DNA of 64,000 nt from Cheilinus undulatus (lineage: Eukaryota > Chordata > Actinopteri > Labriformes > Labridae): NCBI RefSeq assembly GCF_018320785.1, contig NC_054881.1, forward strand, positions 22,010,275 to 22,074,274, read 5' to 3'. Below, piece by piece: positions 201-61,937 of the stretch. The notes under the pieces were generated by a model. That model did not search any database. It was not told the DNA's origin and saw only the letters and a list, made by a program, of their open reading frames with translations. Every line of letters starts with the position of its first letter. Position 1 is the first letter of the stretch. The translations under genes and the position numbers were made by a program.

Positions 201-234
201 ACTATTAAATTAAAGGTCCTATTTCAACAGGATT

Positions 235-590
235 GTGTTTCAAAAACATGGGCCAGACGTAGCCATCGAACAGGCCGGATGGATCTGGCACCGCGTAGTT
301 CCTAGAGCACCTCCTCTTTTTGCATTCTTCATACGGGATGGGAATAAAGTAACGCTGGTTCAGCACGTCAATCAAAGGTTCGTAGGTGTAAAGCAGAAAG
401 CCTTCCACAATAAGGATGTGAGTCTCCTCCTCCTTAGTGTCAGACTTTGGGATGATCTCAGTGTCCAGGGTGTTATCAACGCCATGAGATTTCTCAAACT
501 TCACCGGGTTATCCAACCATGTGTCGATCGTACTCATCATGGCGTCCATATCCAGAGCATTGATGACTTGAAGAAGTCATCCTGATGGAC
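235..590 (-). pseudogene. Nicotinamide riboside kinase (NMRK-like) fragment, broken
   Basis: The - strand encodes a piece of the nicotinamide riboside kinase family, which phosphorylates nicotinamide riboside in NAD salvage. Recognisable family blocks are VHQDDFFK (590-567), [32 protein letters not shown] and [22 protein letters not shown]. The N-terminal P-loop exon is absent. Between the HQDDFFK block and LDMDAM about 20 expected codons are missing, and the two blocks lie in different frames, so there is a deletion plus frameshift. Similarity stops after FLKH, and a stop follows nine codons later, far short of the family length. There is no splice acceptor before the first block, and the blocks, which I expect to lie in several exons in vertebrate NMRK genes, are contiguous. 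This suggests a 5'- and 3'-truncated retrocopy or captured fragment inside a repeat. It is very unlikely to encode a working kinase. I cannot tell whether the parent is nmrk1 or nmrk2. Confidence 0.8.
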
Positions 591-17400: not shown

Positions 17401-20400
17401 TTCTTCATACTATCACAGTAGAGCTCTACAGTGCCCACACACTTTTTGGTGGCTCTGGTTACCAAAGTAAGTTTCACCACTTAAATTCTCCTTTGAAATC
17501 TCTCGATTTAAAACTGTGTTTGAAAACGTGGAAAATGACAAAGGTACAAAGAAGGAATGACATATCCCACAATCCATTGGGATTCCTTTTATTTGTGCTG
17601 GGGGTAGATTTTCAAGCTTTCAAACCATAAATGTATTTTTTTAACAATTATCTTAATTGTAGTGTTCACATTTTAAATGATGTTCTAATACATTGTAGTT
17701 TGCGGATAAATTGCTTCATACTACAGCAGCATGAATGGTCGATTTTACTTCCAGAACTACTCAAGCTTTACAGAGATCACGTCAGTTGACGGAACAGTCT
17801 ACACAACAGCATACGATGCTTCTGCACAGCTAATCTAATCTGGATTATCTGAGGTATCGGATATAAATCAGTTTTCAATGCATATTGAAGTGCATCCACC
17901 AAAAGCATAAAGGTTACCACTAGGGATATAGGAATTTGAATTTGTACCAACTTATTCATTTATACAGCCAATGTTTACAGCTGGTATATCGATTGTAAAT
18001 ATCACAATAACAAATTTTGTTAGCTAATCTCTGCAGATATGGATATCATAATATTTGTGCATCCCTAATTACCACTTGGTATCCAAATGACCAGGACAAT
18101 TTAAGTCTGTTAATGCATTATCTAACCAGAGGCTTTGTATACACTGTTAAACTTTAGCTCTGCTGTTTTCATGTTCTTGATTTAAGTATTGTGCTAAATC
18201 ACTGGGTTACATGTTTATCTTTCACACATTACAACACTGTGCTGGTAGTTCCCCTGAGTCACTTACAAACATGTTTTTCCAACAGCTTGCAAAAAAAAGA
18301 ATGATTCAAATTTTGGCCTACATCATGGGAGAAAAATAATTAATGTGCCAACATTGTTCAATATTGTGACAACAGTATGAACTGATATAAAGAACTGTTA
18401 AAAAGTGCATTTGAAATGGCCTAGAGCAGAAGTTCATCGATGACATGCATATCCAGGCCTCTAATAGGTCAAATGTTCACATTTAGTGAGAAATAATTGC
18501 CTTGTTTAAATATAACACACTCTTAACTATTAACTGATTTTATTAAAATATTTTGTGACTATAGGTGAGCACTTCAAACTGCCAGCAACGTCTTTATCTG
18601 ATCATGCAGTATGGTGTGTTGAGGTCAAATTCAGCCGTTACGAGTGCAGCTGCCTCACCAGTGCAGTGCCCACACTGACACTGGATGCTTGTTAACTCAC
18701 AAAACACAACATTCAAATTTGCGTTTCCCTCTGATTATCTTCATCCCTTAAAAAGACAACAGATGTTGTCGGTGCAGTGTCAGCTGCCGTCTTTCCAACT
18801 TTTTCCTGAACCCATCCTAGACAACAGCTGAGAAGGAAATATTCTGCAGATGTTCTTATTTCTAGTCAGTTTTTATGCATTTTTACTGTCTAAATGAATT
18901 AACCTGACTATTCTTACTGTTTATTTCTGTTTGGGTTGTTGCCTTATAAAGAGTAGAAACATACATGTTCAGTTCTGTTCTTAATGTGGACACTTTTCCT
19001 TGAATTTTGAGCCAGAATGCTCTTTCTCAGACTTGCTGGTGTAGTTATGAGTCATATGTGCACATCCATACAACAACAGCTGTGTTTTGTGTTTCAGATA
19101 ATTTTAAAAACACGATTCACCGCATGTTTTTTTTAATCCTCAAATGATGACATGTTAGAGAGGCACAGTGTGGTTTCAAGCTGACACTAGAGAGGTGTTC
19201 AAATGTGGGACTGGTGTTGAGTTCCTGCTGACTTTAAACCAGCGATAACTCAGTGACAGCAGGAGTGCAGTCTGCCTGCTTCTTACCAGATTCTTCCAAT
19301 ATTTCACAAATGTATTAACTTTTCAAAAATTATGATTCAATTTCTTAAACATTTCAATCGAATTTTATCGGTGAATTTCATGATTGCTTTTTCTCTTAAC
19401 CATATTAAATCATCTCAACCTATCCACTCCAGCTCATTATCAATGCATTTAAAGTTGATTTTAAACTGTAATGTGTTTGCCCTGCCTCCCACTTTACAGG
19501 TTAACCTCCAGATAATTAAGGCGTCCCTTTCAACTCACATCGGGTAATTGTTGGGCCATGTGCAAAATCTGACCGCAGTGAAAGAAAAGTGATCACAGTT
19601 TTACACCTGCATCTGTAATCCTATCACTGTGTTATGATTTCCTTCTCTCAGCTTGTTTAACAACACAAAAGCTGTTTTTTTTTTATTTGGATTAAGCAAG
19701 TTGTTCAGGATTCCTTAAAAGCACACGTGTGTCTGTGGGTGTTTGTGTATCCTTGCATCATACGCGAGCAGACTGTCCTGTGAGGTCACCGTGGGTCGAC
19801 GCCCTGCCCTGCAACCTCTCAGTCCTCTCCCACATGGCCGAGAGCTGACAGTGGCCCGAGGCACTTCCACACCGCTCGGCTTCCAGAGACGCACACATCC
19901 ACACAAATACTCCCCACCCAAACATATGCATGCTAGATACACACCACAACACCTTAATGACTGCCAGCTGGAGCTCGGCCACTACCTGCTGTTGTTGTGC
20001 TGTGTTTCCATTCACACCAGTTTGTGTGTGTTCGTGTGCCCCCAGGCCACAGAGGCCGCCAGCAGGGCCCTCCGAGAGAGCAGCATGAACCTTAACCCCG
20101 ATGTGGACGGGACCATGATCAAGATACCAGTTCCCAAGTGAGTGTCTGTCTGATGCACACATAACCACACGCACTTTTACAAACTGCCTCTAGCTCTGAA
20201 CGCTTTTCATCATGGAGGCACTTTCATTCACTTTTATATGTTCTCCTGATTCCTGTATTTTACTATCAGTTGACCTGTATTCTCACTGCAGCAGTGAAAT
20301 CTGATCAATCAACAAGTGAATGTGTGTTTTTTTTTCTCAAGCATTTTCATCTGTTTTTGTTGTTATTTTCAGAGTTTTATTCAGGAAGACCTCTTTTATG

Positions 20401-41469: not shown

Positions 41470-41475
41470 TTTATT
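41470..41475 (-). terminator. cd274: Candidate poly(A) signal of cd274
   Basis: AATAAA on the - strand, about 150 bases beyond the stop at 41625-41627. Confidence 0.5.
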
Positions 41476-41624: not shown

Positions 41625-42108
41625 CTATACAGTCTCCATTTGGAGCTTGACTACCCGTCCTGTCCCAACTGTCCCCCTAAGCGTGTCACAGTGTCCAGTG
41701 CAGGCCATGACCAGAAGCCTGCATCCTCCTCTTTCACCCATAAATGTCCTCAAGGACTCATCAAAACTCTGGTTCCCCTCTCTGTATCCGTCCAGCAACA
41801 GAAGAGTCTCACTGGAGCGGCTCAATAAAGTCCTCAGCTCCTCTTCTGTTGCCATCTTTTCCTTGATGGAGAGTTGAGTGGTTATTTCCTGAAACAAGTC
41901 CCCCTTCGCTTCGCTGCAGTCCATATAAAGAAGAAGCTGAACGGCGCTGAGGTCGAGGAGGTTTGGGAAGGCATGTGTGGGACCTTCGGTCCAAGAGGAA
42001 ACCAGGAAGTGGGCTAAAATAGTCTTCCCGCTCCCCGAAGATCCCTCGAGAAGAAGTGTCTCTCCTGCCTCTGGGATTAGAGCTTGGAGATTCACAGGCT
42101 GGCCCTCA
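41625..42108 (-). CDS. cd274: cd274 exon 9: truncated NACHT-like P-loop NTPase and stop
   Basis: Acceptor TGTGTATTTCAG, phase 2. Residues 325-485 hold a P-loop NTPase core. Walker A is GSSGSGKT (347-354) after ETLLLE. A strand LLLYMDCSE (383-391) and LFQEI follow, as in NACHT proteins (hhhhxCRE..LF). Walker B is LLLLDGYREGN (427-437); the usual DGxDE is DGYRE here, so the third acidic position is Arg while Glu435 is kept. The sensor-like strand CRLLVMAC replaces the common VTSRP. The chain stops after GRVVKLQMETV, before the NACHT helical and winged-helix parts. It may bind nucleotide; hydrolysis is doubtful (inference). The frame is open for all 160 codons, which argues for selection. Confidence 0.85.
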
Positions 42109-45100
42109 CTGAAATACACAGAAAAAAAGAGCAATGTGAGACTAAAGACACATTCTACAAAACATTTTAAAGTTGTTTTGCCCAACAATTACAATTTTAA
42201 ATCATGTCACTTAAGGCTAAAGGGGGTTTGAAACTTCTTTATGTTGTTTTCATCTTGTCCTGATGTGTTTAACTTATCATACTGTATTTAACACCAGTAA
42301 TGTACAATATGCTGTTGATGTTTTTCAGCAATTTGTATTTCTTTGTTTAAATGGGGATGTTTTTTGATTAATTTATGTTTTTTGATAGTTCCTACTATAG
42401 AGGCAGATACATGTGTGCAGCACCTGGGGACAGAATTCCCTAAGAAGATGATAAAAGGTATATTATCATACCATATTCAACTTTGTTGTATCAAACTGTT
42501 TCATACTGTATGCAGCATAACACACAGCATATGATATAGTATGGCAATGCCTCATATCACAGTGCAACATGTTATACACTATCATATCATTGTATCATAT
42601 TGTTTGCTATTGTACCATATCATAATGTTCCATATCAATGTCATTCTGAGAAAGGTAATTATCATACGATATTTGAGGTGAGGAAATCCCCCCCCAACTC
42701 AAAGCAGTACACAAATCTAATGTATCATTTTAATAAGCAATTAACAGTCAGTGTTTTCAACATTAATTTCATTTCCTTTTATTCTTTTTGATTTTAAATA
42801 TGGTGCTTTAAAGAAAGAAACTGTCCAAAATGATCCGCAAATCAGACCAGGAAAGTATTAGATCCCCTGTAATGATTGGAAACTGGAACATTTAAACCCT
42901 GAAGCCTCTAACAGTAAAGTGTGATTTCTCTGTTGTGTGCTGTTTGATTTGAGCAGGCAGAAGTCCTTGAGGAGACCTGACTGTGATCAGGTCGATTAAA
43001 GAAAGCATGAGAACAGAGCATGTGTTTTGTATCATCCCGGATGTTCTGGATTTTGGGCTTTTTTAAATGTCACTGTCAGTTTATGTTTTCTCCTGGTGGT
43101 TGAGGACAAATATTTGAAAATTGGTTTTAAAGACTGTAAATCTAGTTCAAATCAATTTTAGCATACTGGATGTGGTTCCTGGACACCAAAATTGTTACTT
43201 GTTCAAATTGAGAATGGCTTTTAACTTTCAAGAGATACTGGCCACTGAGAAATTGGTGGTTTGATTTTTAATCTAGACTGTTACATATCAATTATCTAGT
43301 TCAGTTTTTCATGGGAGGGGGGCCTCAAAAAAGCCAGCCCCGGGGCCCAAAGTCACAGGAAGCCGCCCATGCCTACAGGTAAGATGTGATTAAATCAAAT
43401 CCTTCCCCACCAAATCATATTGTATATATGTGCTTGTATATATGGTATCATTTCGCATGCTATTGTATCCCATCCTATCGTATGTTATTGTAATTGTATC
43501 GTAATCTTATCGTATTGTGATTGTATTTTAATCTATTATACTGTATTGTACCACATCCTATTCTATTGATTCATAATGTAATGTATCTTATTTTATTGAA
43601 TGTTTTCTTATTGTGTATTCACTATTGAATTAAATGTCTCTTCTTGAATCATCCTGCATCCGTGGTATTAAATGTAATGAATTGTGTAACATCTTATCAC
43701 AAACATAAAAACATAAAACTAAAATTAAACTGGAATGGTCTGAACTCATAGTTTATGCTTTGAAGCCTGAACCACGTTAGAATTTATAACAAAGAGTCGC
43801 AAAATTAATTCAGCTCAATGGCAATTTACTGCTTTTTTTAAATGCTTTTTTAAAATAACAATCACTGCTTTTTAGTTGATAATGAGCTGAAAGTTGTGCT
43901 TTGCAAAATTCTGTAGCCCCTAAATTAATGTCTAATTAAAGCAATGCACACACAGCAGGATTTAGTATCCTCAATCACTTAAATAAAAAAGTTTGTGCAT
44001 TGTTTTTTTCCGGAAAGAAAAATGAACCAACTAAACACATTTTAAAGGTTTACAATAAAGATCATATTTTTTGGAAATGAGTCAGGCATTCTGAGTAGCT
44101 CTGTGGAAAATAGTGACTCACTTGTTTTTCAGGCTGTAAGGCAGCATCTCCATACCGAAAGCCTCCCAGTACTGTCTCGGCCTCTCAGTGAAGGAAAGGT
44201 CCAAGTAATAAGCTTTCACAAACGCCTTCAGGTTTTCCTCAACACTGCCTGCAGAGCACAACAGACATGATTATATTCAGATTGATCACATTCAATCAAT
44301 CAGTGAAAAGGGGTCAAAAACTGAGAAAACAAGAAGAAAAACAAGACAGTCCATAATATATTTTTCCAGGAATTCTTACTTATGTGGGGCTTTGTTTTGC
44401 AAAAATTCCAGCCAACACAAATTTAAAAAGTTAAAAAGATCAACACACCATCTCCAGTGTCACTACAGATGATTAATTTCCTATGTATAGACTGTAAAAT
44501 AGGTTACCTAATCGCTGTGTCAATTGCTTCTTTTCTATACATTCACTTTGGCAGTTAACCTAATTTATCTGACTGTTGCATGGAAAAACACCACATGGTA
44601 AAAAAGGAGGTTAATTACTTATATAAATAAGCCCTTCTCACCTATTCTAAACTGCAATCAAGTTCATAACATCTTCAGACTCTCTTACCTTTATTAAAAA
44701 TGGTTCTCTCCTCTTCATTTTCTTTACTCATTTGCAAGCCTGTAGGGAAAAAATATGGTTTTGTGAGCAGTTAATCAAAACTTTAGTCTACTTATCTGTC
44801 CACATCCATCAAATTGAAATGAAAAAATACAACACAAAACTGAGGTATTAAATTAAGTACAAATTCAAAGAAAAGGGGATCTTTATACTTCTGTATTCAG
44901 GAGAACAAACTGAGTGTGAGTCAGTGTCATAAAATAGACCTCAGCAGACAGCATGATGATGGTAAATGATTACATAGGCACATTTTTTGACACATTTTCA
45001 GGTGTAAAGCTTTAAATGCATACACTTAAAACAATTTCTGAATAAAATTTGCTTGTGTCATGTCTAATTCCCTGCAGTGAGAGCTTCCAGATTCACAAAT

Positions 45101-48100
45101 GCATCATCAACAGAGACCCTGGATTTGTTTTTTATTTTAAGTTTATGTAGCAAATTTCAGAACAGTACTACCCTGTGCTTGGAAACAGCAGTATCTATAA
45201 AGCTTCCCAAAACCATTCCTTTATCCTGCAAGGAGTTTTGTTGCTGTTATTGTACTGCAAAAAATTAAAATCTTAGAAAGTTCATTTGTGTAATGTTAGT
45301 CAGAAATGTCTAATTACACTTATTTTAATCTGTTCACTCAACAAACTATATAATCCTCTTGTTTTCATCTTTAAAACCCATAAAAGCATGCATTGAATTA
45401 ATAAATAAAACGATCTGCAAATGATAAGAGCAAATTTTACTTGTTGAGTGTCTTTTTGCAGTGTGCTGCTCCATCTATAGTAATATGTGTGGATTTCCTG
45501 TTACTGTGACTATTATCTTTTTTAATGGGTCCATATACACAGAGGTAATTATGGTAATGTACAATAAGTGCAGTAAATAGTAAGGATGTGTTTTGACTCA
45601 CAAAAAACAGGTAAAACAGTCTTGCTTCCTCCATTTACCATAATGTTCCTGGTGCTGCCTTTTCTGCACCCTGTGAAAAAAAAAAACAGAATGCTTTTGG
45701 TTTATAACAATCAATATATAAACACAAAAAAACATTTACACAGCTAAGTAAAGTGGTGCTGAACTTGGAGAGAATAGAGACTGTTTTAAAGCAACACTTT
45801 TTTGCTATGTTTGGACGGCGGCACATCCTGGGCGACTGATTTAAACAGTTTTGATTTGAAATCATTTAACCTGCTCATATATTTATTTTTTCATATTAAA
45901 GCAGTACAGCTTGGCATGGTTTGGCACAGTAAACCATTTTCTTGCATACATTTTCATCAGAGGTTGAAAGTAACTAATTGCATTTACTCAAATTACTTTT
46001 TTATGTTTTTTTTTTGAGTACAGTTTTTAAATCAGTACTTTTACTTCTACTCAAGTAAATCTCAACCACAGTAACGGTACTTTTACTTGAGTACAATGGT
46101 CTGGCTCTTTGCACACCTCTGATTTTCACAGCCAATGTCTGTCCAGCCTCACTCATAGTGATAGAAATTCCAGCTCTTTTTAGAGATGTGTATCATGTAG
46201 TGAGAGTGTGTATGAGTAGGAACGGGATAAGGGGTAGGAAATAGAGGATTGACTGGATGTATTGATGTACAGTGAAAAGAAGTCAATAAAAGTTCAGATG
46301 AAGGCTATGCATGTCTCCCATCCTGGTCTTTATAGAAAGCCCGAATGCAGCATACTACATATCATTTGGATAGCTCCGTAATAAGAGCCAAACTTTTGGC
46401 TCCCAAAAAACTCTTTAAGGAAACCAACTCTCAAATGGGAGCTGGCCCTCAGAACCAAACGACACATCACTACAGCTCCCAAGTTGTCTTCCTGAAGTGA
46501 GTTACAGTTTCACTTTTGTCCAAAGTAGCATACATTTAAGAGTTATAACACTAGGGGAGAATGACATTAGGATGTCCTTCGAGTCTGACTGGACACAGGT
46601 GCTGCTATCATCCTCACCAAAGCACTGGAGCAATAGTCAACATCATCATGAAATCTCAATACTGTCATCATCAATAACATTGGCATCCTAAAAGAAGAAG
46701 GCAAAATTGAGACAGGACAAACCAGTTGTTTTGGTCCCTTTCCACACTGAAATGAACTGAACCCCACCGCTTTTTTTTACTCATCAGATCTTCATCGAGC
46801 TCAAGAAAAACTCAGCAAGACTTAAACTGAGGCAAAACAAATAGAAATGGTAGATAAATGTGCGGGATTTTTGACGCGTTTCCAAGTCAAAACTTTTTGA
46901 CCTTGCACACTGAATACTTTGACATCACGTTTGACAAGAAAGGTTTCGAAACGGAACCAGTTTCAAAATACCCTCAAATATTTTTTGCTTCTGTAACCGA
47001 AGCAAGACCTCTTATCATTTTCACACAATCACTAGAAATAAACGCGCTGTTAAACAACTTTTGATATGATGGTGCCATTAGTTATACTGAAAAATCACCC
47101 ATGCATTAACAAATTCCCCCTCTCACACACATCAACATCTTACTTGGTGTTTCCAAATCTGCTGGTTGTGACACATGTAATGTCCAAAATGCAAAGTCAC
47201 TCTGACATGAAAAACATGAGTCACATGCTGACAAAAGTCCCGCTTAACAAAGCAGACTACATTACGGTGCCAAATTATATACCTATTTTCTGTACCGCTT
47301 CAAGAACACTTCCTCTTTTTAGCAGCCACATGACTTGACTCAACATGTGTCTCTTTGACAACAAAAACAAGTCTTACTGCTGAATTTATGCATTTCTTAC
47401 TGACAGGACAAAAATTGTTGTGCTGGTTCAACAAAAAAAGGTGGCTTAGAGCTGAATCAATGAAATCTGTATGAGATTAAGGACCATTTTTTCATGCTTG
47501 TTTGTTAAGCAAGTGCAGGTAGGTCTTTTAAAACCTTCTGTTCTGTTTAATCATTTTTTCTTTTGTAGATTATGACACTTGGAAATACAGCAGTTTGAAT
47601 CTTAGAAAACAACTGGATTATCCATTCCTATTTCCTGCAGGTATCAGTGCACATCCTGATGGGATATCCAGCCTTTCAGTGACCTCGTCTTGCTCTCACT
47701 CTGCCTCACAGGCTGCAGACTGACAGACTGTCTCTTTGTTAGAGAAGATATCAGGTAATAATTTCACAAATGCACTGCAGTCCAGTGCATCATGGCCTCA
47801 TATAGGGAGGAAAAACGCAGTCTGTCACTTTTGTGTAAAACATAGACTGCTATTTGCCACTTTATCAACTGAAAGAGATGTAGGAGATTTTGGAGAAATT
47901 ACTAGAACTTTTTTGGCAAGTATCTAACTGGAAAAGGTTAAAGTCTTGACTTCCCTTATCCTATTGTCACATATGCAAAAAACTCAAAACGGAGGACCCC
48001 AAATGCATATAAAACAAAATACTTTTAATGATCAAAAATCCAAAGGGAAAAACTCCAACTAAACTTACTTTACAAAAATAACAAACTAGTTCACAAAAAT

Positions 48101-51100
48101 CCAGACACAAGGGAGACTTCACATGCAGCAGCAAACATCCAACAGCAAACAATGAACTGACAACAGACAGGAGGAAACACAGAACCTAAATACACAGGGA
48201 GTGATTAGACAAGGAGAGACAGGTGTGGTAAACGAGACTCAGGTGAACCTAGTGAGGGCAGTCACAGGGTGCGTCTCACTTCTCTTATTATAAAGTTTGA
48301 GTCTTTGGCTTGAGTCTTTTCCTTGAGTCTTAGTTCCGCCCACCAAAGACTCATGGAGAGACCGAGGAATCGACGCGGAAGACTGAAGCCATAAGACAGA
48401 TGATTAACCGTCCACGGGACGTTCTTATCTGTGCAGCGTCACTTGAAGCGACGTCAGTTTATGATGACGGTGCCGGCTGATCATCAATCAGCTGATCATC
48501 AATCAGCTGTCAGCAGGCAGAAACAGCTGATTGTGTCTCCATAAATTAACAGATGTTGGCATTTACAGGGATTAGAAAAGCCCTGCATGAAGAGAAACCT
48601 GCAGTAAACATCAGAAGTTTTAAAAGGCTCATGAACTGATGGGCTGGGATTTTAAAAAGTGTTTGAAATAAGCATTTACAGTGAAATATTGAAAATATAT
48701 TTAATAAAATCAATGGTAAAGACTGAATCAGTATAGAATTTATATTTGATTAGTTTTCTGATTCACCTTCAAACATCAAACATGTTTAAAGCTCATAAAA
48801 TCAACAGAATCAGATATAAATCTCCCCTTTCCCCCAAAAAACTGACAACATTTAGAGGATTTTTTCTACATTCGGTCCATCATAACCCTGAATTTAGAAA
48901 AAAGATAGTTGTAGAAGATTATTAAATTATTCTGTCCACCTGATGTAGACCAATTTTAGCCCAATAATAGTGGTTAAAAATATGACCATACAGCGACATC
49001 TTTACAGAGACGTCTTTACAACGACATCCAAATTACATGTTTTCACCTTTCACTTTTCTATTAAATCTAGACGCTGTTTAGACAGAGTGGAGACGTTTTT
49101 AACATCATTGCAACTACTTTTTGATATCAAAAAACATGCGGGCTCTTTCTACCTGCAAATTATTCTTTCTACCTTCACATTATTCAGTGTGAAGGTTGAT
49201 CAGATCTGACACTATCAGACTGATAGAAACTTTATTAATACTGCTATGATTTAAATGTGTTGCTTCTTAAAATCAGACAGACTGCTGCTGTCTGATTTTA
49301 ATTCTCTTCATAATCTAATAAACAGAAATTTCTAAATAGACAATAACACTGAGCAAAAGATATTGACTAAATTAAGGCTATGATGGACTGAGTGTAGAAA
49401 AAAACCCTCTAAATGTTGTCAGTGTTTGGTGGGAAAAGGAAGATTTATATCTGAATCTTTAGATTTTATGAGCTTTTAACATGTTTTGTTTGAAGGTGAA
49501 TCAGAAAACTAATCAAATATTAAACTCCATTGATTCACTCTTTATTATTGATTTTATTATTTATTCTCAATATTTCACTGTAAATGCTTATTTCAAACAC
49601 TTATTTTAAATCCCAGCCCATCAGTTATTGAGCCTTTTAAACTTCTAATGTTTATATTCTGTTTAGAGTCTGTTGAGTTTGTTTATCGTCTGTAATAAAC
49701 TCTGTTTCTCCTCCATCATTTATCTCTGCTGGTGCTGTAAAGTTTCACTGACATCCACTGTGTAGCAGCGTCCAATCAGAGAGAAATATCCAATAAGGGG
49801 GCATGCCTCTGAGTAAAAAGAGTTCTGGGAAGCCTGCTGTGATGTGTCTTTGCTCATCGGTCTTGAAATCTCAGTCCTCGGTCTTATGGCTTGAGTCTTA
49901 AAACCCTGTAAGGGCTTTGGCACAGCCGTCAAGATGGCGGATCGGAAACTACTTCCGGTTCGAGCTAATCCGTAGGATCTGGGACCGATCTATAAGCAAC
50001 TTGGGAAGCGGCTACAGTGGAGGGAAACTGAGGAACAATACAAGAAAAGAAGAATCACAAAAGGTAATCAACTAAACACGGGAACATGATACAACATAAA
50101 GCACAAAATAAACAGAATAAACACAGGGAACACTGGGGAACTCAAGAACACAGTAAATCAAACCTAGACTGTGACACCTATCAAGGGAACATCAAAATGC
50201 ACTTTTAATTATTTTTGCGCATATAATTTGGTATCAGGAGAATCTACAGACCCATAAAATGTGAAATCAGCAAGCCCTTTGTTCATCGTCCACCTATGTC
50301 TGAAAACATGAAATCTGGCAGTCTCTTCAGATTCATGAAAAACAAATTTACTTATATGATTACTAATTAAGACAACTTTAACCACATGGGGTGCTGGACA
50401 AGTCCACTAAACATCCCCCAAACTTTTAATCAACCATCTTTGTAAGACTAGACATCAGAAGGAGCCTTATAACCTCATGTTTGAAATAAAAAAATCTTTT
50501 GGATGTCCTTATGGAACATAAAATATAAAGAAGTGCCTTCTAGAGTGCCAGTCCAGAAGTAAAAATGTGATAAATTTCCCTCTAAGGTGCCCTTTAAGTG
50601 AGTAATACACAACAAAGTGCCCTTTCTTCCTCTGACCAAGCTTCATAAAATCCTAGAGATATGCATCGCTAGCTGAGCGACAACTGCTTCAGTAGTGCAC
50701 TGATTCCTGGATTCTTTTCATTTATTTATTTCAATGTATCTAATCTGGAAAACCCCACTTAGATCAAGAATCTCATTTTCAAGCCTGTCCTGGCCAAGAC
50801 AGTCGGGAGCACATTTAACAGAGTAACAGACATGAATCATAGTGGTTACAAACAGATCAACTGATAGCAAGTCACAGGACAAGGAGTCATTAGTCACAAA
50901 CATCTTCAACCCGATGCGTCCTCCTCTAATCTACTTGTAATAGTATAGTAAAAATGTTTTAATAGACCAGCTCCCCAAGACACAAGTTTTGCTGCAGGAG
51001 TCTTTAGATTGGTAATGAACCTCAGTGCCCCATTGTGTACAGTATCCAAAGATTTAAGGCCTTGAGAGGATACATGTATGTATGAAACATCATCATAATC

Positions 51101-54100
51101 AATCAGAGGCCCAAAAGTGGCAGCAAGAAGCCTTTTCTCTGCAGGTTTCAAAACTAGACAACTCACGCAGAGTTTCCTGTATAATATAAAAGACTTCCTT
51201 GAAGCGACAGAAAGCCTGACGCTGTGTAGGTGTGGACCTCTGAATGGCAGTGTCATCCACATATAAAGGGAACACAGCATATCTGTTCTTATGCTGCTAT
51301 GCATTAAGGACATCCTAGTTGATTCCAACACCCTGACAAGGCTCCTTGGTATAAAGTTCATTTTCACTGATATCCTCACTTGTGAATCTTTGCAATCAAA
51401 TGTCAAAGGTCATCATTCATCTGTTTTATAACAAATATGTAGTAACTTTTTCAATTGGCACTGATTCGAAACCAAACACTGTACAAAGAGAGCACCCTTG
51501 TCTCTGATATACACATTAAAAAAATACTTAATCCCAACCAGGTTTTCCTAACTTTTCCCACATCTTTTTGCGTCCCACTGTGCCCCTAAAACATCCTGAG
51601 TCAGCCAATGGCTGAAAATGATGAGACAAAGTAGTAAAAAAATAACTTAGTTACCATTCTGATGTCGATACACGAGAACTGCAGCGACAATGACAATCAG
51701 TATCACTCCAATACACGAAGTAACGATGACAGCACCATTGTTTCCATCCGGAACACGTATTTCATCTGCAAAAAAGAAGAAGGAAAAGAGTTCCTACATC
51801 AAAACCTCATAAATGTTCACAACACAGGAGTTAAACCTATTCTTTCCTTATTTTTTGACCACTACGGAAATAACCAAATATACCAAAGGCTGGTGTAAAC
51901 TTCCCCTTAGTGGTCAACAATTTGAAAAGCACAACTTTTAAAATAACTTGTTGGTTTAGTAGTTTTAAAGCTTTATATGACTGATGATTTTAATGTTGAA
52001 TTTAACCCCAACTCTCTCAATCTAGCTTTACAACAGTCTGTTGTTCAACAATCTGCCCAACTGTAACACCTGATAACAGTTTGTGCTCTAGGAGAAAAAA
52101 AAAAATCTTTTGCACACTTGTATGCACAAACTCGACAGCCTAGAAATACATCCAGGAAGTCACACGTCAACACCCTGTAATATGTGCAATAAAAGCACTC
52201 CTACATGCTGCCAAAGCTTTTAAAGTCAACCCCAAACACCTACAGTCTCAGCAGTTACAGAGGAAAAAACTGTTTTCAAGAGCTGAATTGCTCATATGTG
52301 ATAAATCCCCTCTTTGTTAGTAATCATGTTTGATCTAGGCTGAGAGGAGAAGCCTCTATTACAATATGAGCACAATAGGAAACTGCAGTGCGTGGGGATA
52401 ACTTCACAAGTGATGATGCTATATTTCCAGTTTTTAGGTAATTGTGCTTCATAACTTTGCCTTTATATGATGTGATTGATTTCATGCTAGATGAGGATGA
52501 CTGGGAAAAGAGAGGCTGTCATTATGGGGGAAAAAACAGTCAAGACAATGACACATATACAGAAAGATACAGGCTTACTTATTGTGTTTGCTGATCATTT
52601 CATTTTCTTGTTTTAGTACAGAGTACATAGAAGAACATAGGGGAAGACTTATGAATAATGACATTTGAAATTCTAAAATTAAAATGAGATATGCAAAACA
52701 AAGCATTTGCTTGGTTGTATTGTACTTAGCTCCGACATTTGACAGTGCTTCTATGTTTATTCTGTAAACAAACATTTTGATGATAAGAATTAATTTGAGG
52801 GCTTTTATCATGGCTAAATTGAGAAACCAGAGTTCATGGTGAACATATCAAAAAATAATCTTGGTTCATAACTCCCTGATGATTAAAGACAAAAAAGCAG
52901 CTAATAGAAGCACAAATCATTCTCTTTTGCTTTGCTATCTGCCCTGAATTACAAAGCATATCATACTTATAATATTCAAGCACTAATAGTCCTATAATGT
53001 TTGGCTTCTTTGTGGAGTTTGCTTGTTTTGTGTCTGATCAGCACCACCCCTCTCTGCTTTATGGAGCACTGTTCTTGTCCTAACCAGGTGTTAATTCAAG
53101 GACCCCCTAAAATCTGATTGGTCACCCCAATTCATATGCTGTTTTCTTTTCAGCTACAAAGGAAATCTTTGATGAAGGCTGTATTCTTTCTTTAAGGATG
53201 GTCAGTCACCTAGCATATCTTAACCTATACTTGATTAGATTTCACCAACTCTAATACACTAAAGTTGAGGTATATCAAAGTGGCCCAGTCATCCTTACTT
53301 GTTTTTCTCCATGTGGCCCTTAGTAAGAAAAGTTTCTACTGCCCTGACCTAAAAAATGCTACTGCAACTTCTGCTGTCTTGTTGAAAAATCTTAAGGAAA
53401 AAGTACCTGGAATCTGAAATGTTGCAGACTGTCCATCGTTTCCAAAGCTGCACGTGTAGTTCATTTTGTCTGATGATGGTACACGAATCTGACTGGTAAC
53501 TCTAAAGAGCTTCTCCGTTGTTGATAAGGTAGTTGTATTGGCAAAGAGTTTCTTCATGTAACCATCCTTCCACATAACAGAGGACTCAGGGTATCCCTCT
53601 GACTGGCAGGTCAGCAGCACACCATCCCCTTTTGGATCTTTCTGGATGTCCTTAGTGACTGCTTTATAAGGTGCTGGGGAAGAATGGAAAGAGAGAAGGC
53701 TTGGTTAGCAATGATTTCGCAGTTATTCATCTCTCAACTGGAAGGCCGGGGTTCAAACTCAAGGTCCTGCAGTCAAAGAGCCTCTTCATCCCTTCCAATT
53801 ACAGGAAACATCACTCCTTCTATTACAGCCCAAGGAGATGGCTTCCCTACCTAGAGTCTTCACCTTACAAGTTCTTTCAACTTCCATTTGCTCCCTGAAC
53901 TGCTTCTTTCAATCCATACCCTCAACTCTTCATCTCTCACCATAACCTTCATCCACCTTCATCCATTTCTCCCTTTCCCTTGTTCTTCTGCCTTCATCCC
54001 TCTAACCCTACCCCAGCCCCTTCCTTCTTTGAACCCTAACCTCATCCCTCAATACCTCAATCTCTATTTACCCCCATCCCCTTCTCCCTCTATCCTCACC

Positions 54101-56624
54101 CCCTGTCCCTTAGTTACATCCCTTAACCTCTCTACCCATACCCCTATCCCTTCCTCCCCTGATTCCTAATCTCATCAATTAATCCCTCAATCCCTATTTT
54201 TAGCCTTCATCCCTTGATCCCTATCCCACATCCCTGCTTTTATAGCCAACCCCCAATCCTCATCCCCCAACCCCTATTCTTAACCTTTATCCCTTGATAC
54301 CCTTCCTCATCCCTTACCTCTATCTCTTAACCCCTACCTTCATCCCTATCTCCATCACCCTTCACCCCTTGAACCTTACCTCCATCCCTTCATCCCTTAA
54401 CCCCTACCTGCATCCTTTAATCACAAATCCCTGTCCTATTCCCATGATCTCTCTCTTTATCCCTCATACCTCCATCTCTACCTTTATCGCTTTATCCCTC
54501 AGTCCTTTTCCTCAGCCCTCATCCCTTAATCATCATCCCTGCATACCTTCTGCACTAATGTATTATTTCAATTCAATACTGTAAAATGGTCTTTGTTTGA
54601 GAACGGGATATTGCACAATAGTAAGACACAAGCACAGACAGTTTGAGGTTTCTTTACAAAATTGAGTAATTTTGTTCTTAGTTTCATTTTCACAATGAGG
54701 AGTACTGTAACTGTCCAGAAATGACCAGATGTTACCAAATGAGGAACCCCTTTCCCAGCACAAAGTTCCTGAAGGCATTACAGAAAATAAAGTTACAAGC
54801 TGTAAAATAGTTTGGCCTAACCTTTCACTGACAATTTTATTTCTTTGTAATCAGCTCCTTCTGATGTCTGCACCACACACTGATACATCCCAGAGTCACT
54901 GATTTGCAAACTGGAGATCTGTAGGAAGACAAAAGGAGAGCATATATCACATTATTTATCCTGTTGCATGTTTCATCCATATTAAGATCAAGGATTGTGC
55001 TGTGCAGTCCCTCATTCTGTTTCTCCAGTGTTTCTGTTTCCCAAACACTGGGGATGCTGGGATTCTGCTGCACAAATTCATACTTATTGAATAATGTGAA
55101 TGGCTAGGGTTATTCATACTTACGCCTGGTTTGTGCTTCTCTGTTAATTTTATGCCCTTGTGGCCAATGCCATCTCGAGTCCCCTCATACTTTTGCGCTG
55201 GTATGTCTGCATCGCTGTGCAATGCTTTACCCAAATGCAACTCATCAGTGTGATTTTATGCCCAGTCTCATTGTCATAGTTCCTGCTTGTTTGTTCACAG
55301 GAAACTATATCAACTAAAACTGAGTGTATCATGTTGGAGTTGGAGCTGATAAATACTGAGCAGCAGTTGGTTATACTGCAGTCATTACAAACAAGAAAAG
55401 AGAGGGGCCATTAGAAGAGAAGGGAAGTATGGCTTGCTGAATCAGCTGGAGCAAAGGATGGGGATTTTTTTGTTTTTCTTTTTCACCTACTGAGAGAGAC
55501 ATGAATGAGAAAATGCACGTCTGATATTTTCAGATTCCGTCAAGAAGAATTAACAAGGTCTGTCACCATTTGCAGCCATTATCTCACAGCAGAGTGCACA
55601 CAATACGCCTGATAACATCTGTATCATTTTGGCACATGGTTACATTTTTGAAGAGGTGCACGTTGGCGTAGGCCTCTGTGAAGGATTCAGGACTACTTGG
55701 ACACAAGGGGAGGCTTTGGTGCTGCTTTAAATTAGAAGTATACATCAGGCTTTAGAGTAATAACACCACTCATTCTGATTTTAGATTATTTAAGTAATAA
55801 AAGAATAACCAAACAAAACTCTACATTTAAGAGAAACATTTACTTATGCTATCAGTCTGGCAGGATAAAAACAATGGTGTACTAATTCAAGAAAACACTG
55901 CAGTTCACAAACCATCCCATTTCCTATACACTCGGGAATTTCACCCTACATTAGAAATTCCCAAAAGGGTGAAAAGAAGACAAGCCCTCACAAGTTAACA
56001 AAACACTAAAAGGAAACTGACGAGAAATAACCCATCACCTAGAAATTAAATGTAAATCAGAACATGCCCCTGCACGTACTTACCTGTAACTTGGCCCAGC
56101 CGTCCTTCACCTCCTCAGTGAGAAGCTTCACTCTGCCCTGATAGTCAGGATCCTGGAACTGTAACTGCTCCTTCCAATTATCCATGCTGTAAATATCCCG
56201 AGGCATGGGAGAGTCCATTCGGAGCCAGGTCACCTTTAGCTCAGCACGAGGAGTGGACAGTTTAGGCTTAAAGCTGCAGCCCAGGACAACATCTCCTCCA
56301 TACTCTGAATCATACTTGGTTTGTCCTGCCTCCACAGTTAACAGGACAGCTGGAAGAAAATACAAAATAATGATAACTTTATATTAATTCAACATATAGC
56401 CACAATATGCATGCTTAGATATATTTGAAATATCAAATTGTGCTCATCAGACCATGTAACTTGCTTGTGCTAGACTTGTATTTCAATTAAAACTAGCAAC
56501 AACTAATTATGCATATTCATAAAACTACACTCTATGTGTTGTATTTCATACATTAAAAATTCTACTTACCCGTTACTGATGGCTGAAACAAAACTAGCAA
56601 CACTAGAAAAAAGTCCAAGTCCAT
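41625..56624 (-). CDS. cd274: PD-L1-like B7 family receptor with cytoplasmic NACHT-like domain
   Basis: PD-L1 is a cell-surface ligand that restrains T cells through PD-1 (family knowledge). Coding exons on the - strand are 56624-56570, 56349-56084, 54918-54822, 53673-53407, 51765-51655, 44739-44689, 44248-44122 and 42108-41625. All junctions are GT-AG and phases agree, giving 1458 nt and 485 residues. Residues 1-18 form a signal peptide. The IgV has Cys43, Trp60 and Cys121 (DSGMYQC) and ends near GADYK, as in PD-L1. The IgC has Cys162 and Cys214, and CQSEGYPESSVMW and TTEKLFRVTSQIR resemble human PD-L1. A helix spans about 240-260. Residues 267-485 are cytoplasmic and end in a P-loop NTPase with GSSGSGKT at 347-354. 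The mammalian tail is only about 30 residues. The neighbour plgrkt supports the identity. The NACHT exons could instead be a separate gene starting at Met269 in exon 7. Confidence 0.8.
42450..42640. repeat. Degenerate ATATC/GTATC-type repeat
   Basis: Irregular repeats of TATCATA, GTATCAT and CATATC, similar to those at 43420-43620 and more weakly at 14150-14270. It lies in the last cd274 intron. Confidence 0.5.
43420..43620. repeat. Degenerate TATTGTATC-type repeat
   Basis: Runs such as TATTGTATC, TATCGTATG and TTATCGTATTGTG, with the pentamer-like unit TATCG much decayed. It lies in the last cd274 intron. Confidence 0.5.
44122..44248 (-). CDS. cd274: cd274 exon 8: region before the NTPase
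   Basis: Acceptor GTGCTCTGCAG, donor GTGAGTC, phase 1 in and 2 out. It encodes SVEENLKAFVKAYYLDLSF and TERPRQYWEAFGMEMLPYSL, a helix-rich piece with aromatic residues. I do not recognise the family, but its place just before a NACHT core suggests the helical lead-in found in NACHT proteins. Confidence 0.75.
44689..44739 (-). CDS. cd274: cd274 exon 7: acidic linker
   Basis: Acceptor TTCCCTACAG, donor GTAAGAG, phase 1 in and out, 51 bases. It encodes LQMSKENEEERTIFNK. The in-frame Met269 could be the start of a separate gene if this exon is not joined to the membrane exon. Confidence 0.65.
45639..45670 (-). CDS. Possible 32-nt alternative exon of cd274
   Basis: A long T-rich tract and CACAG precede it, and GTAAATGG follows. 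After the membrane exon it would read GCRKGSTRNIM, and the next exon would then be entered in another frame and stop as ACK. Inclusion would therefore give a short tail (RHQNGCRKGSTRNIMACK) instead of the NACHT tail. The RKG start recalls the mammalian PD-L1 tail (RKGRMMDV), but the match is too short to trust. Confidence 0.3.
45958..46121. mobile_element. 164-bp hAT-like MITE
   Basis: The ends are CAGAGGTTGAAAG and the complement of CAGAGGTGTGCAAAG. It is flanked by ATTTTCAT (45950-45957) and ATTTTCAC (46122-46129), an 8-bp duplication with one mismatch. The interior is the ACTTTTACTT/AAGTAAAT text of a very common fish repeat. Confidence 0.8.
47965..50176. mobile_element. DNA element (outer) split by a palindromic element
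   Basis: It begins TGTCACATATG and ends ACTGTGACA, short inverted ends. The two parts (47965-48264 and about 50017-50176) read as one A-rich element (AAACACAGAACC, GGGAGTGATTAGACAAGG, then GAGGGAAACTGAGG) of a kind common in fish. Confidence 0.55.
48267..50016. mobile_element. Foldback element with ~290-bp inverted arms
   Basis: Arms 48603-48897 and 49368-49654 are reverse complements at high identity (for example GATTAGTTTTCTGATTCACC against its complement), around a 470-base centre that has its own short hairpin (AAAATCAGACAG). The tips GCGTCTCACTTCTCTTA and, on the opposite strand, GCTTCCCAAGTTGCTTA are similar. There is no transposase. It lies in the cd274 intron before the NACHT exons. 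Confidence 0.65.
50890..51400 (-). mobile_element. LINE reverse transcriptase relic
   Basis: The - strand encodes ATFGPLIDYDDVSYIHVSSQ and LDTVHNGALRFITN, typical of the end of the reverse transcriptase domain of fish LINEs. In another frame the same strand has YVDDTAIQRS, the Y-x-DD catalytic motif. Frameshifts therefore separate the motifs, and the element is dead. It lies in the intron after the cd274 membrane exon. Confidence 0.8.
51655..51765 (-). CDS. cd274: cd274 exon 6: stalk and transmembrane helix
   Basis: Acceptor TTTTTTGCAG, donor GTAACT, phase 1 in and out. Residues 229-265: a short stalk DEIRVPDGNNG, the helix AVIVTSCIGVILIVIVAAVL, then YRHQN as the cytoplasmic stop-transfer. 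The phase 1 end joins in frame to the exon at 44739. Confidence 0.88.
53407..53673 (-). CDS. cd274: cd274 exon 5: IgC domain
   Basis: Acceptor CTTCCCCAG, donor GTACTT, phase 1 in and out, the usual exon form of an Ig C-type domain. Residues 140-228 contain LLTCQSEGYPESSVMW, TTEKLFRVTSQIRVP and MNYTCSFGN. Sites for N-glycosylation are seen at NTT (185) and NYT (211). Confidence 0.93.
53671..53770 (+). repeat. Possible tRNA-derived SINE head
   Basis: GGGGTTCAAACTC (about 53750) is box B-like, and TTGGTTAGCAATG is a weak box A. The start overlaps the IgC exon edge, so the left limit is uncertain. Confidence 0.25.
53885..54560. repeat. Pyrimidine-rich degenerate minisatellite
   Basis: About 675 bases of imperfect units built on CCCTTAACCCCTACCTCATC, almost free of G on the + strand. 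In the cd274 transcript it would be a long purine-rich tract (GGGATGAGG). It lies in the intron between the IgC exon and the second IgV exon. Confidence 0.75.
54822..54918 (-). CDS. cd274: cd274 exon 4: end of IgV domain
   Basis: Acceptor CTTCCTACAG, donor GTTAGG (weak), phase 0 in and 1 out. Residues 108-139 are ISSLQISDSGMYQCVVQ and EGADYKEIKLSVK, the E-F-G strands with the second IgV cysteine. Human PD-L1 has the same GADYK before its G strand. Confidence 0.9.
56084..56349 (-). CDS. cd274: cd274 exon 3: first part of IgV domain
   Basis: Acceptor TTCTTCCAG, donor GTAAGTACG, phase 1 in and 0 out. Residues 19-107 include YGGDVVLGC (B strand Cys43), VTWLRMD (Trp60) and YQGRVKLL, the usual R-V-x-L strand D. 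The domain breaks off after AKLQ, before the F strand. Confidence 0.9.
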
Positions 56625-61856: not shown

Positions 61857-61937
61857 ATGGGGTTTCTACTGTCTAAAACAATGGATGCAAACTTGAAAAA
61901 GCAGCAAGAATTCATGCTCCACAATGCACGGCTGCAG
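61857..61937 (+). CDS. plgrkt: Plasminogen receptor (KT), first coding exon, partial
   Basis: PLGRKT is a small membrane protein that binds plasminogen through its C-terminal lysine and promotes plasmin formation at the cell surface (family knowledge). This exon starts after an acceptor TGTCCTTAG (exon begins 61833), has ATG at 61857 and ends before GTAACTTC, phase 0. Its 27 codons, MGFLLSKTMDANLKKQQEF and MLHNARLQ, closely resemble the N terminus of vertebrate PLGRKT. The next exon, expected to begin near LERQLIMQ, is not found before the window ends, so the gene continues to the right. It is divergent from cd274, as in mammals. Confidence 0.93.

What the first reader, a model, noticed from the sequence alone, without database searches (positions are those of the whole stretch)
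41625..51765. PD-L1-like receptor joined in frame to a cytoplasmic NACHT-like NTPase
The membrane exon of a clear PD-L1 homologue ends in phase 1. The next supported exons (44739-44689, 44248-44122, 42108-41625) continue in matching phases into a P-loop NTPase with Walker A GSSGSGKT and Walker B LLLLDGYRE, then a stop and a poly(A) signal. Mammalian PD-L1 has only a short tail. A checkpoint ligand that carries a STAND/NACHT-type module inside the cell would suggest reverse signalling or nucleotide-dependent clustering. I know of no described case, but I cannot search.
Basis: partly seen in the sequence, partly recalled or inferred. Interest (0 to 1): 0.93.

Follow-up and report, generated by a model that had tools for sequence, protein, structure and literature searches.

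The report
Fish PD-L1 with NACHT-like tail
In this fish genome the gene for the immune-brake protein PD-L1 appears to continue, inside the cell, into a small ATP-binding-type module of the kind found in inflammasome sensors; a long tail had been reported in fishes as an unexplained extension, and this reading would say what it is.

Summary
Eight predicted coding exons on the minus strand (56624-41625) splice in matching phases into a 485-residue protein: signal, IgV, IgC, membrane helix, then a 220-residue tail. The last exon (42108-41625) scores above Pfam's NACHT cut-off (39.8 v 26.7 bits); its best solved relative is NLRC4. It is a truncated nucleotide-binding domain: Walker A and B are present, no winged helix, and no sensor-1 arginine that I could align. 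The match rests heavily on Walker A, yet NACHT is the only Pfam family still listed when Walker A is altered or removed. 'No described case' needs correcting. Long PD-L1 tails encoded by 'exon 8' are published for 9 of 13 representative ray-finned fishes; NACHT, NLR, ATPase, NTPase, P-loop and Walker occur 0 times in that main text (PMC12151841). An Ig-membrane-NACHT receptor is known from a sea cucumber (PMC8699970). Here coding exon 8 is this NACHT-like exon. So the novelty is the probable identity of a known, unexplained tail. No transcript, relative or structure prediction was available; mechanism is inferred.

The parts
56570..56624 (-). PD-L1 coding exon 1: start codon and signal peptide
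   Evidence: ATG, donor GTAAGTAG (rank 4 of 926 in region); signal peptide by eye, no predictor run
56084..56349 (-). coding exon 2: first part of IgV domain
   Evidence: Pfam V-set 5e-11 on the joined ectodomain
54822..54918 (-). coding exon 3: end of IgV domain
53407..53673 (-). coding exon 4: IgC domain
   Evidence: Pfam Ig_3 7.1e-13 and C2-set_3 5.4e-10
51655..51765 (-). coding exon 5: stalk and transmembrane helix, ends in phase 1
   Evidence: acceptor rank 2 of 1095, donor rank 38 of 926; helix by eye
44689..44739 (-). coding exon 6: charged linker of 17 codons, phase 1 to 1
   Evidence: acceptor rank 7 of 1095, donor rank 5 of 926; codon usage not coding-like
44122..44248 (-). coding exon 7: pre-NACHT segment, no Pfam match
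   Evidence: 0 of 500 null windows as coding-like; no Pfam match; no second copy found in the genome
41625..42108 (-). coding exon 8: NACHT-like nucleotide-binding domain, 160 residues and stop
   Evidence: Pfam NACHT 5.4e-10, 39.8 bits over cut-off 26.7; NLRC4 7.1e-6; no second copy found in the genome
42021..42044 (-). Walker A, GSSGSGKT
   Evidence: read from sequence
41778..41804 (-). Walker B, LLLLDGYRE
   Evidence: aligns with FLLDGYNE of NLRC4
41470..41475 (-). poly(A) signal AATAAA
61857..61937 (+). first coding exon of the divergent neighbour plgrkt
   Evidence: Pfam DUF2368 positions 1-27, E 1.7e-4, 21.7 bits, under the cut-off of 25 for a 27-residue piece; the name PLGRKT for this family is recalled; the rest of the gene was not assembled
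45602..45670 (-). optional tail exon, not in the best model: 69 nt keeps the frame; a 32-nt version (to 45639) leads to a short tail
   Evidence: strongest acceptor of the region (rank 1 of 1095), donors rank 89 (69 nt) and 43 (32 nt) of 926; codon usage not coding-like; no second copy found

Best explanation
This is one gene, PD-L1 (cd274), of a ray-finned fish of the long-tailed type. Exons 6-8 give a 220-residue cytoplasmic tail whose last 160 residues are a reduced, NLRC4-like NACHT nucleotide-binding domain, very probably the published but unidentified 'exon 8' tail. Shown here: sequence, phases, domain match, truncation. Inferred mechanism: the module binds ATP/Mg through Walker A and B but lacks the winged helix that locks ADP in full NLRs, so it is not a complete STAND switch. 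It acts as a membrane-anchored docking or self-association unit: when PD-1 (or BTLA, reported as partner of zebrafish PD-L1) clusters the ectodomains, the packed nucleotide-binding domains recruit cytoskeletal or trafficking partners and drive clustering or internalisation of PD-L1 in the presenting cell, as is reported for the NACHT domain of sea cucumber AjNLRC4 through beta-actin.
For: Gene model and phases. NACHT over its curated cut-off while the next family, AAA_22, is below its own. NLRC4 top among solved chains and, without Walker A, still top at E 0.088. An NLRC4 segment finds this exon as its second-best place in the genome (1.6e-4, after a NOD2-like gene at 6.0e-6; 5 places at E up to 1). 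hhalign of exon 8 to nine of this genome's NLR domains P 5.1e-8, score 53.6, best of 200 shuffles 25.5. No second copy found, so no sign of a recent NLR insertion. CpG observed/expected 0.15-0.17 at 44-46 kb against 0.64 and 0.56 at 59 and 61 kb, so no CpG-rich stretch just before exon 6. Coding exon 8 equals the published exon-8 tail in position and single-exon make-up. AjNLRC4 has the same domain order.
Against: No RNA. The paper's Figure 6 letters were not available, so identity with the published tail is by position only. With Walker A altered, Pfam NACHT falls to 17.0 bits, under its cut-off, and hhalign to 20.9, inside the shuffle range (maximum 25.5). The last 50 residues do not align significantly with NLR sensor-1 segments. 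Exon 6 is not coding-like. Walker B reads DGYRE where 8 of 9 aligned NLRs of this genome read DGLDE or DGYDE. The exon was not among the 99 scored places of the genome-wide NACHT search, whose weakest row was 3.7e-29. CpG is 0.48 and 0.51 at 48-50 kb, inside the tail intron. The mechanism has no direct evidence, and 4 of 13 representative fishes lack the tail in print.
Confidence: 0.5

Rival explanations
1. The gene model is right but the module is a degenerate, purely structural tail. It does not use nucleotide; it only sets membrane association, stability or sorting of PD-L1, as suggested in print for the fish tails and for the human tail.
For: No sensor-1 arginine recovered and no winged helix; the C-terminal third does not align; the authors propose membrane interaction through hydrophobic patches (section 23, passage).
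Against: Walker A lysine and threonine, Walker B aspartate and the following glutamate are all kept.
Confidence: 0.3
2. The main product is a short-tailed PD-L1, and the NACHT-like tail is a minor splice form. The 32-nt version of the 45670 exon, or retention of the first tail intron, would end the protein within a few residues.
For: 45670 has the strongest acceptor of the region (rank 1 of 1095). Reading on past 51655 gives a stop after HQNGN, and the 32-nt exon followed by exon 6 gives ACK-stop (both read).
Against: The 69-nt form of the optional exon is not coding-like and its donors are weak (rank 43 and 89 of 926); the published survey argues that presence or absence of the tail between species is not splicing variation.
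Confidence: 0.12
3. 44739-41625 is a separate small gene starting at an ATG in the 44739 exon, downstream of a PD-L1 that ends elsewhere.
For: An ATG lies a few codons into exon 6; the intron before it is 6.9 kb; I did not scan that intron systematically for other tail exons.
Against: A good acceptor exactly at the phase that PD-L1 needs; low CpG in the kilobase before exon 6; published exon-8 tails of PD-L1.
Confidence: 0.06
4. The exon is a chance P-loop or belongs to another P-loop family, not NACHT.
For: Loss of Walker A removes most of the score.
Against: It is above the NACHT cut-off, and none of the other 12 families listed reaches its own; NACHT is the only Pfam family still listed without Walker A (E 0.0054 and 0.0088).
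Confidence: 0.05

Closest known systems
Long 'exon 8' cytoplasmic tail of ray-finned fish PD-L1 (PMC12151841, 2025; credited there to Hu et al. 2023, J Immunol)
   Same: Same gene; single terminal exon; coding exon 8 here; described as long, with conserved acidic residues and hydrophobic patches
   Different: The main text has 0 occurrences of ATPase, P-loop, NTPase, Walker, NACHT, NLR; I could not compare letters (figure and supplement not held)
Sea cucumber AjNLRC4 (PMC8699970)
   Same: Two extracellular Ig domains, a membrane helix, intracellular NACHT at 600-757, no LRR and no CARD
   Different: Reported as a bacteria-binding receptor with a second membrane helix after NACHT; not described as a B7/PD-L1 protein; sequence not compared
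NLRC4 and NAIP nucleotide-binding domains
   Same: Best solved relatives of exon 8; GESGKGKS Walker A and DGYNE Walker B in NLRC4
   Different: Full NLRs continue into HD1, winged helix, HD2 and LRR and are cytosolic (general knowledge); this exon stops 50 residues after Walker B
Human/mouse PD-L1
   Same: IgV, IgC, membrane helix; PLGRKT neighbour (recalled); signalling through the tail is reported in dendritic cells (PMC11777207, passages)
   Different: The mammalian tail is short and has no such domain (short)

Membership tests
PD-L1 (CD274) | IgV, IgC and one membrane helix | tested here: met
   (helix read from the sequence; no predictor run)
PD-L1 (CD274) | closest solved B7 relative is PD-L1 | tested here: met
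   PD-L1 aligns over both Ig domains at 1.2e-28 (3.7e-29 for the longest chain); CD276 has a better whole-chain value (8.1e-37) because it matches twice, 9.9e-17 and 1.4e-16 each
PD-L1 (CD274) | synteny with plgrkt | tested here: met
   27-residue first exon only, 21.7 bits, just under the Pfam cut-off of 25
PD-L1 (CD274) | binds PD-1 | not testable with these tools
   needs a binding assay
Long-tailed ray-finned fish PD-L1 | tail encoded by one terminal exon, exon 8 | tested here: met
   it would be exon 9 if the optional exon is used or a 5' UTR exon is counted; the paper's PD-1 figure is by coding exon, its PD-L1 count was not seen
Long-tailed ray-finned fish PD-L1 | sequence identity with the published tail alignment | not testable with these tools
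   figure and supplement not held
NACHT (Pfam PF05729) | score over the curated cut-off | tested here: met
   39.8 bits against 26.7
NACHT (Pfam PF05729) | full-length domain | tested here: not met
   match covers profile positions 2-100 of 167
STAND NTPase / NLR | HD1, winged helix, HD2 and sensor domain after the NBD | tested here: not met
   in-frame stop at 41625, 50 residues after Walker B
STAND NTPase / NLR | sensor-1 arginine | tested here: inconclusive
   no significant alignment of the last 50 residues to any of 7 NLR segments; the script stopped at the eighth of 9, leaving 2 untested
STAND NTPase / NLR | nucleotide binding and oligomerisation | not testable with these tools
   bench
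Ig-TM-NACHT receptor of AjNLRC4 type | order of domains | tested here: met
   the second membrane helix of AjNLRC4 was not seen here (by eye)
Ig-TM-NACHT receptor of AjNLRC4 type | common descent | not tested
   AjNLRC4 sequence not held

The most novel reading that the evidence does not exclude
Ray-finned fish PD-L1 is a checkpoint-NLR hybrid: its tail is a working, nucleotide-gated NACHT domain, so that engagement by PD-1 or BTLA sends an NLR-type signal back into the presenting cell. The Ig-membrane-NACHT plan shared with echinoderms might even be an old deuterostome receptor plan that tetrapod PD-L1 lost.
Probability: 0.12. Interest if true: 0.92.

Novelty: new variant of a known kind. Interest (0 to 1): 0.64.

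Why it matters
The conserved long tail of fish PD-L1 was published as a puzzle whose function 'remains speculative' (PMC12151841, passage). If it is a NACHT-like nucleotide-binding domain, the puzzle becomes testable by simple biochemistry (nucleotide binding, Walker A change, tail removal in a fish model that carries the tail), and it would give a vertebrate case of a checkpoint ligand fused to an NLR-type module, relevant to the debated question of reverse signalling through PD-L1.

Tried and rejected
Rejected or led nowhere. A recent NLR insertion: no close copy of exon 8 was found in the genome (next best E 2.0, 5 candidates scored), although at least 99 NACHT places lie over the cut-off (99 of 99 scored of 210 candidates). 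Prokaryotic or viral relatives: viral contigs gave 4 pattern matches, 0 confirmed; genome contigs 19 pattern matches, 0 confirmed; the patterns used did not include Walker A, so distant NACHT proteins could be missed. Sensor-1 mapping by alignment: not significant (89 and 966 of 1000 shuffles reached the score for the two NLRs that ran; 491 to 1650 of 2000 shuffles for the 7 of 9 segments that ran). By eye the end of exon 8 resembles the last NBD strands, with Cys where the Arg would be; I do not count this. No fish other than this one could be searched, so no test of selection. Hu et al. 2023 is not held.

Paper searches. On a fish PD-L1 tail named as NACHT, NLR or nucleotide-binding: 20 of 2796 papers listed; 15 of 21; 15 of 74; 0 found; 12 of 57. 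On fish PD-L1 in general: 16 (20 of 394), 21 (20 of 219), 37 (11 of 11). On Ig plus membrane plus NACHT proteins: 47 (12 of 14), 51 (12 of 12). Apart from PMC12151841 I recognised no paper on a fish PD-L1 tail among the titles listed; papers on related fish molecules that were listed, such as PMC9245511 and PMC11599192, were not opened.

Full report
What is there. The window is a stretch of a 1.17 Gb genome in 46 contigs, from contig 17; the PD-L1-plgrkt pair and the NLR repertoire point to a ray-finned fish (inference). On the minus strand eight predicted coding exons splice with matching phases into 485 residues: signal peptide (56624-56570), IgV in two exons (56349-56084, 54918-54822), IgC (53673-53407), stalk and membrane helix (51765-51655), and three tail exons (44739-44689, 44248-44122, 42108-41625) with a TAG stop and AATAAA at 41475.

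It is PD-L1. Pfam finds V-set and C-type Ig domains. Among solved chains, PD-L1 aligns over both Ig domains together at about 1e-28. CD276 has the better whole-chain value (8.1e-37) only because it matches twice, at about 1e-16 each. No second copy of the ectodomain was found: of 92 matches at E up to 10 the first four are this gene's own exons, and the next eight are 27-34% identical. A divergent first exon on the plus strand (61857-61937) matches DUF2368, the plasminogen-receptor family as I recall its name, at E 1.7e-4, slightly under the cut-off for so short a piece.

Is the tail joined? Exon 6 has good splice sites (acceptor rank 7 of 1095, donor rank 5 of 926 in a 15.7 kb region) but is not coding-like by codon usage (0.528 of null windows as high). 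Exons 7 and 8 are coding-like (0 of 500 and 0 of 375 null windows as high). The weights of the splice score were typed from general knowledge, and some joints score modestly: the membrane-exon donor ranks 38 of 926, the exon 8 acceptor 31 of 1095. CpG observed/expected is 0.15-0.17 at 44-46 kb against 0.64 and 0.56 at 59 and 61 kb, but it is also 0.48 and 0.51 at 48-50 kb within the intron. So nothing suggests a CpG-rich promoter just before exon 6, and this is weak evidence in fish. An ATG near the start of exon 6 leaves the separate-gene reading formally open. A further candidate exon at 45670 has the strongest acceptor of the region; in a 69-nt form it keeps frame, in a 32-nt form it gives a short tail. 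No second copy of it was found and the 69-nt form is not coding-like. I did not scan the whole intron for other short exons. Only RNA can settle isoforms.

Independent support from print. PMC12151841 (I read section 12, one of three parts of the reference list, and passages) reports that many ray-finned fish PD-L1 proteins carry a long tail of 'impressive conservation' encoded by a single exon, exon 8, in 9 of 13 representative species, found already in bichir, not found in salmonids, and in the authors' view not explained by splicing. In this window the last coding exon is the eighth. The text mentions acidic residues and hydrophobic patches and proposes membrane contact; 'ATPase', 'NTPase', 'P-loop', 'Walker', 'NACHT' and 'NLR' each occur 0 times in the main text. 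I could not see its Figure 6, so the equation of the two exons is an inference from gene, position and exon structure, which I put at about 0.9. Hu et al. 2023, credited for the first sight of the tail, is not held, so it may say more.

What the module is. Exon 8 alone scores 39.8 bits for Pfam NACHT (cut-off 26.7, E 5.4e-10); none of the other 12 families listed reaches its own cut-off. The match covers profile positions 2-100 of 167. The best solved relatives are NLRC4 chains (7.1e-6), then NAIP (BIRC1) and NLRP14. An NLRC4 segment used against this genome finds a NOD2-like gene first (6.0e-6; the name is recalled) and this exon second (1.6e-4). Profile comparison with nine of this genome's NLR domains gives P 5.1e-8, score 53.6, against a maximum of 25.5 in 200 shuffles.

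Results against. Replacing Walker A drops that profile score to 20.9, within the shuffle range, and the Pfam score to 17.0 bits, below the cut-off. Without Walker A, NACHT is nevertheless the only Pfam family listed (E 0.0054 and 0.0088) and NLRC4 the top solved chain (E 0.088). The last 50 residues, where sensor 1 should be, do not align significantly with NLRs (7 of 9 segments ran). The genome-wide NACHT search did not list this exon among its 99 scored places, which all scored far better. So this is a NACHT-like nucleotide-binding domain with good evidence for its first two thirds, and no evidence for the switch half of a STAND protein.

How it may work. Kept: Walker A lysine and threonine, Walker B aspartate and a following glutamate (DGYRE; NLRC4 has DGYNE). 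Missing: HD1, winged helix, HD2, LRR. A domain of this kind could bind nucleotide and self-associate but could not be locked by a winged helix. The nearest tested analogue is sea cucumber AjNLRC4: two extracellular Ig domains, a membrane helix, an intracellular NACHT domain (600-757), no LRR or CARD; a dimer-sized form and internalisation are seen after infection, the purified ectodomain oligomerises, and its intracellular NACHT part binds beta-actin (Kd 5.87 uM) to drive uptake (PMC8699970: abstract, passages, sections 31 and 35). A second sea cucumber Ig-TM-NACHT protein is reported with the reverse orientation (PMC13133943: abstract and passages). By analogy, I propose that ligand-driven clustering of fish PD-L1 packs the nucleotide-binding domains and couples the receptor to cytoskeleton or trafficking in the presenting cell. 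Zebrafish PD-L1 on macrophages is reported to engage BTLA on CD8 T cells (PMC12298638, passages citing Hu 2023). Mammalian PD-L1 already signals through its short tail in dendritic cells (PMC11777207, passages). Sub-confidences (judgement): gene model 0.85; NACHT-like identity 0.88; this is the published tail 0.9; nucleotide binding 0.6; the specific clustering and trafficking mechanism about 0.35. The 0.5 given for the best explanation is for the whole statement with the mechanism read broadly.

Verdict. A real and interesting feature. The tail itself is known; its likely identity as an NLRC4-like nucleotide-binding domain was not stated in anything I could see (ten searches, mostly as listings cut at 11 to 20 titles), though automatic domain annotation in public databases may already show it, and Hu 2023 and the supplement were not seen.

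Noticed in passing
window 45602-45670 (-): Candidate alternative tail exon with the strongest acceptor of the region; the 32-nt form would make a short-tailed PD-L1.
   Followed up: partly
window 50906-51409 (-): 167-codon open frame inside the first tail intron; looks like the end of a LINE reverse transcriptase by eye (recalled), but Pfam gives no match.
   Followed up: partly
window about 48400-49950: Seen by eye: two stretches of the first tail intron look like inverted copies of each other, as in a mobile element. No repeat search was run.
   Followed up: no
window 19719-20138 (+): Open frame whose end matches ribosome recycling factor (PF01765, E 2.4e-4, 21.4 bits, below cut-off 29.7): possibly an exon of mrrf.
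   Followed up: no
window 205-576 (-): Open frame that resembles a nicotinamide riboside kinase by eye (recalled); Pfam found nothing at E up to 0.01.
   Followed up: no
G000 whole genome: NLR-rich genome: 99 of 99 scored NACHT places (of 210 candidates) lie over the Pfam cut-off. The NLRC4 segment found nothing closer than a NOD2-like gene, so an NLRC4 gene proper was not seen.
   Followed up: no
L010 (G000:C11:30929240-30929584, -): 553-residue open frame with an NLR-type domain whose Walker B reads FVFDDLDY instead of FDGLDE.
   Followed up: no
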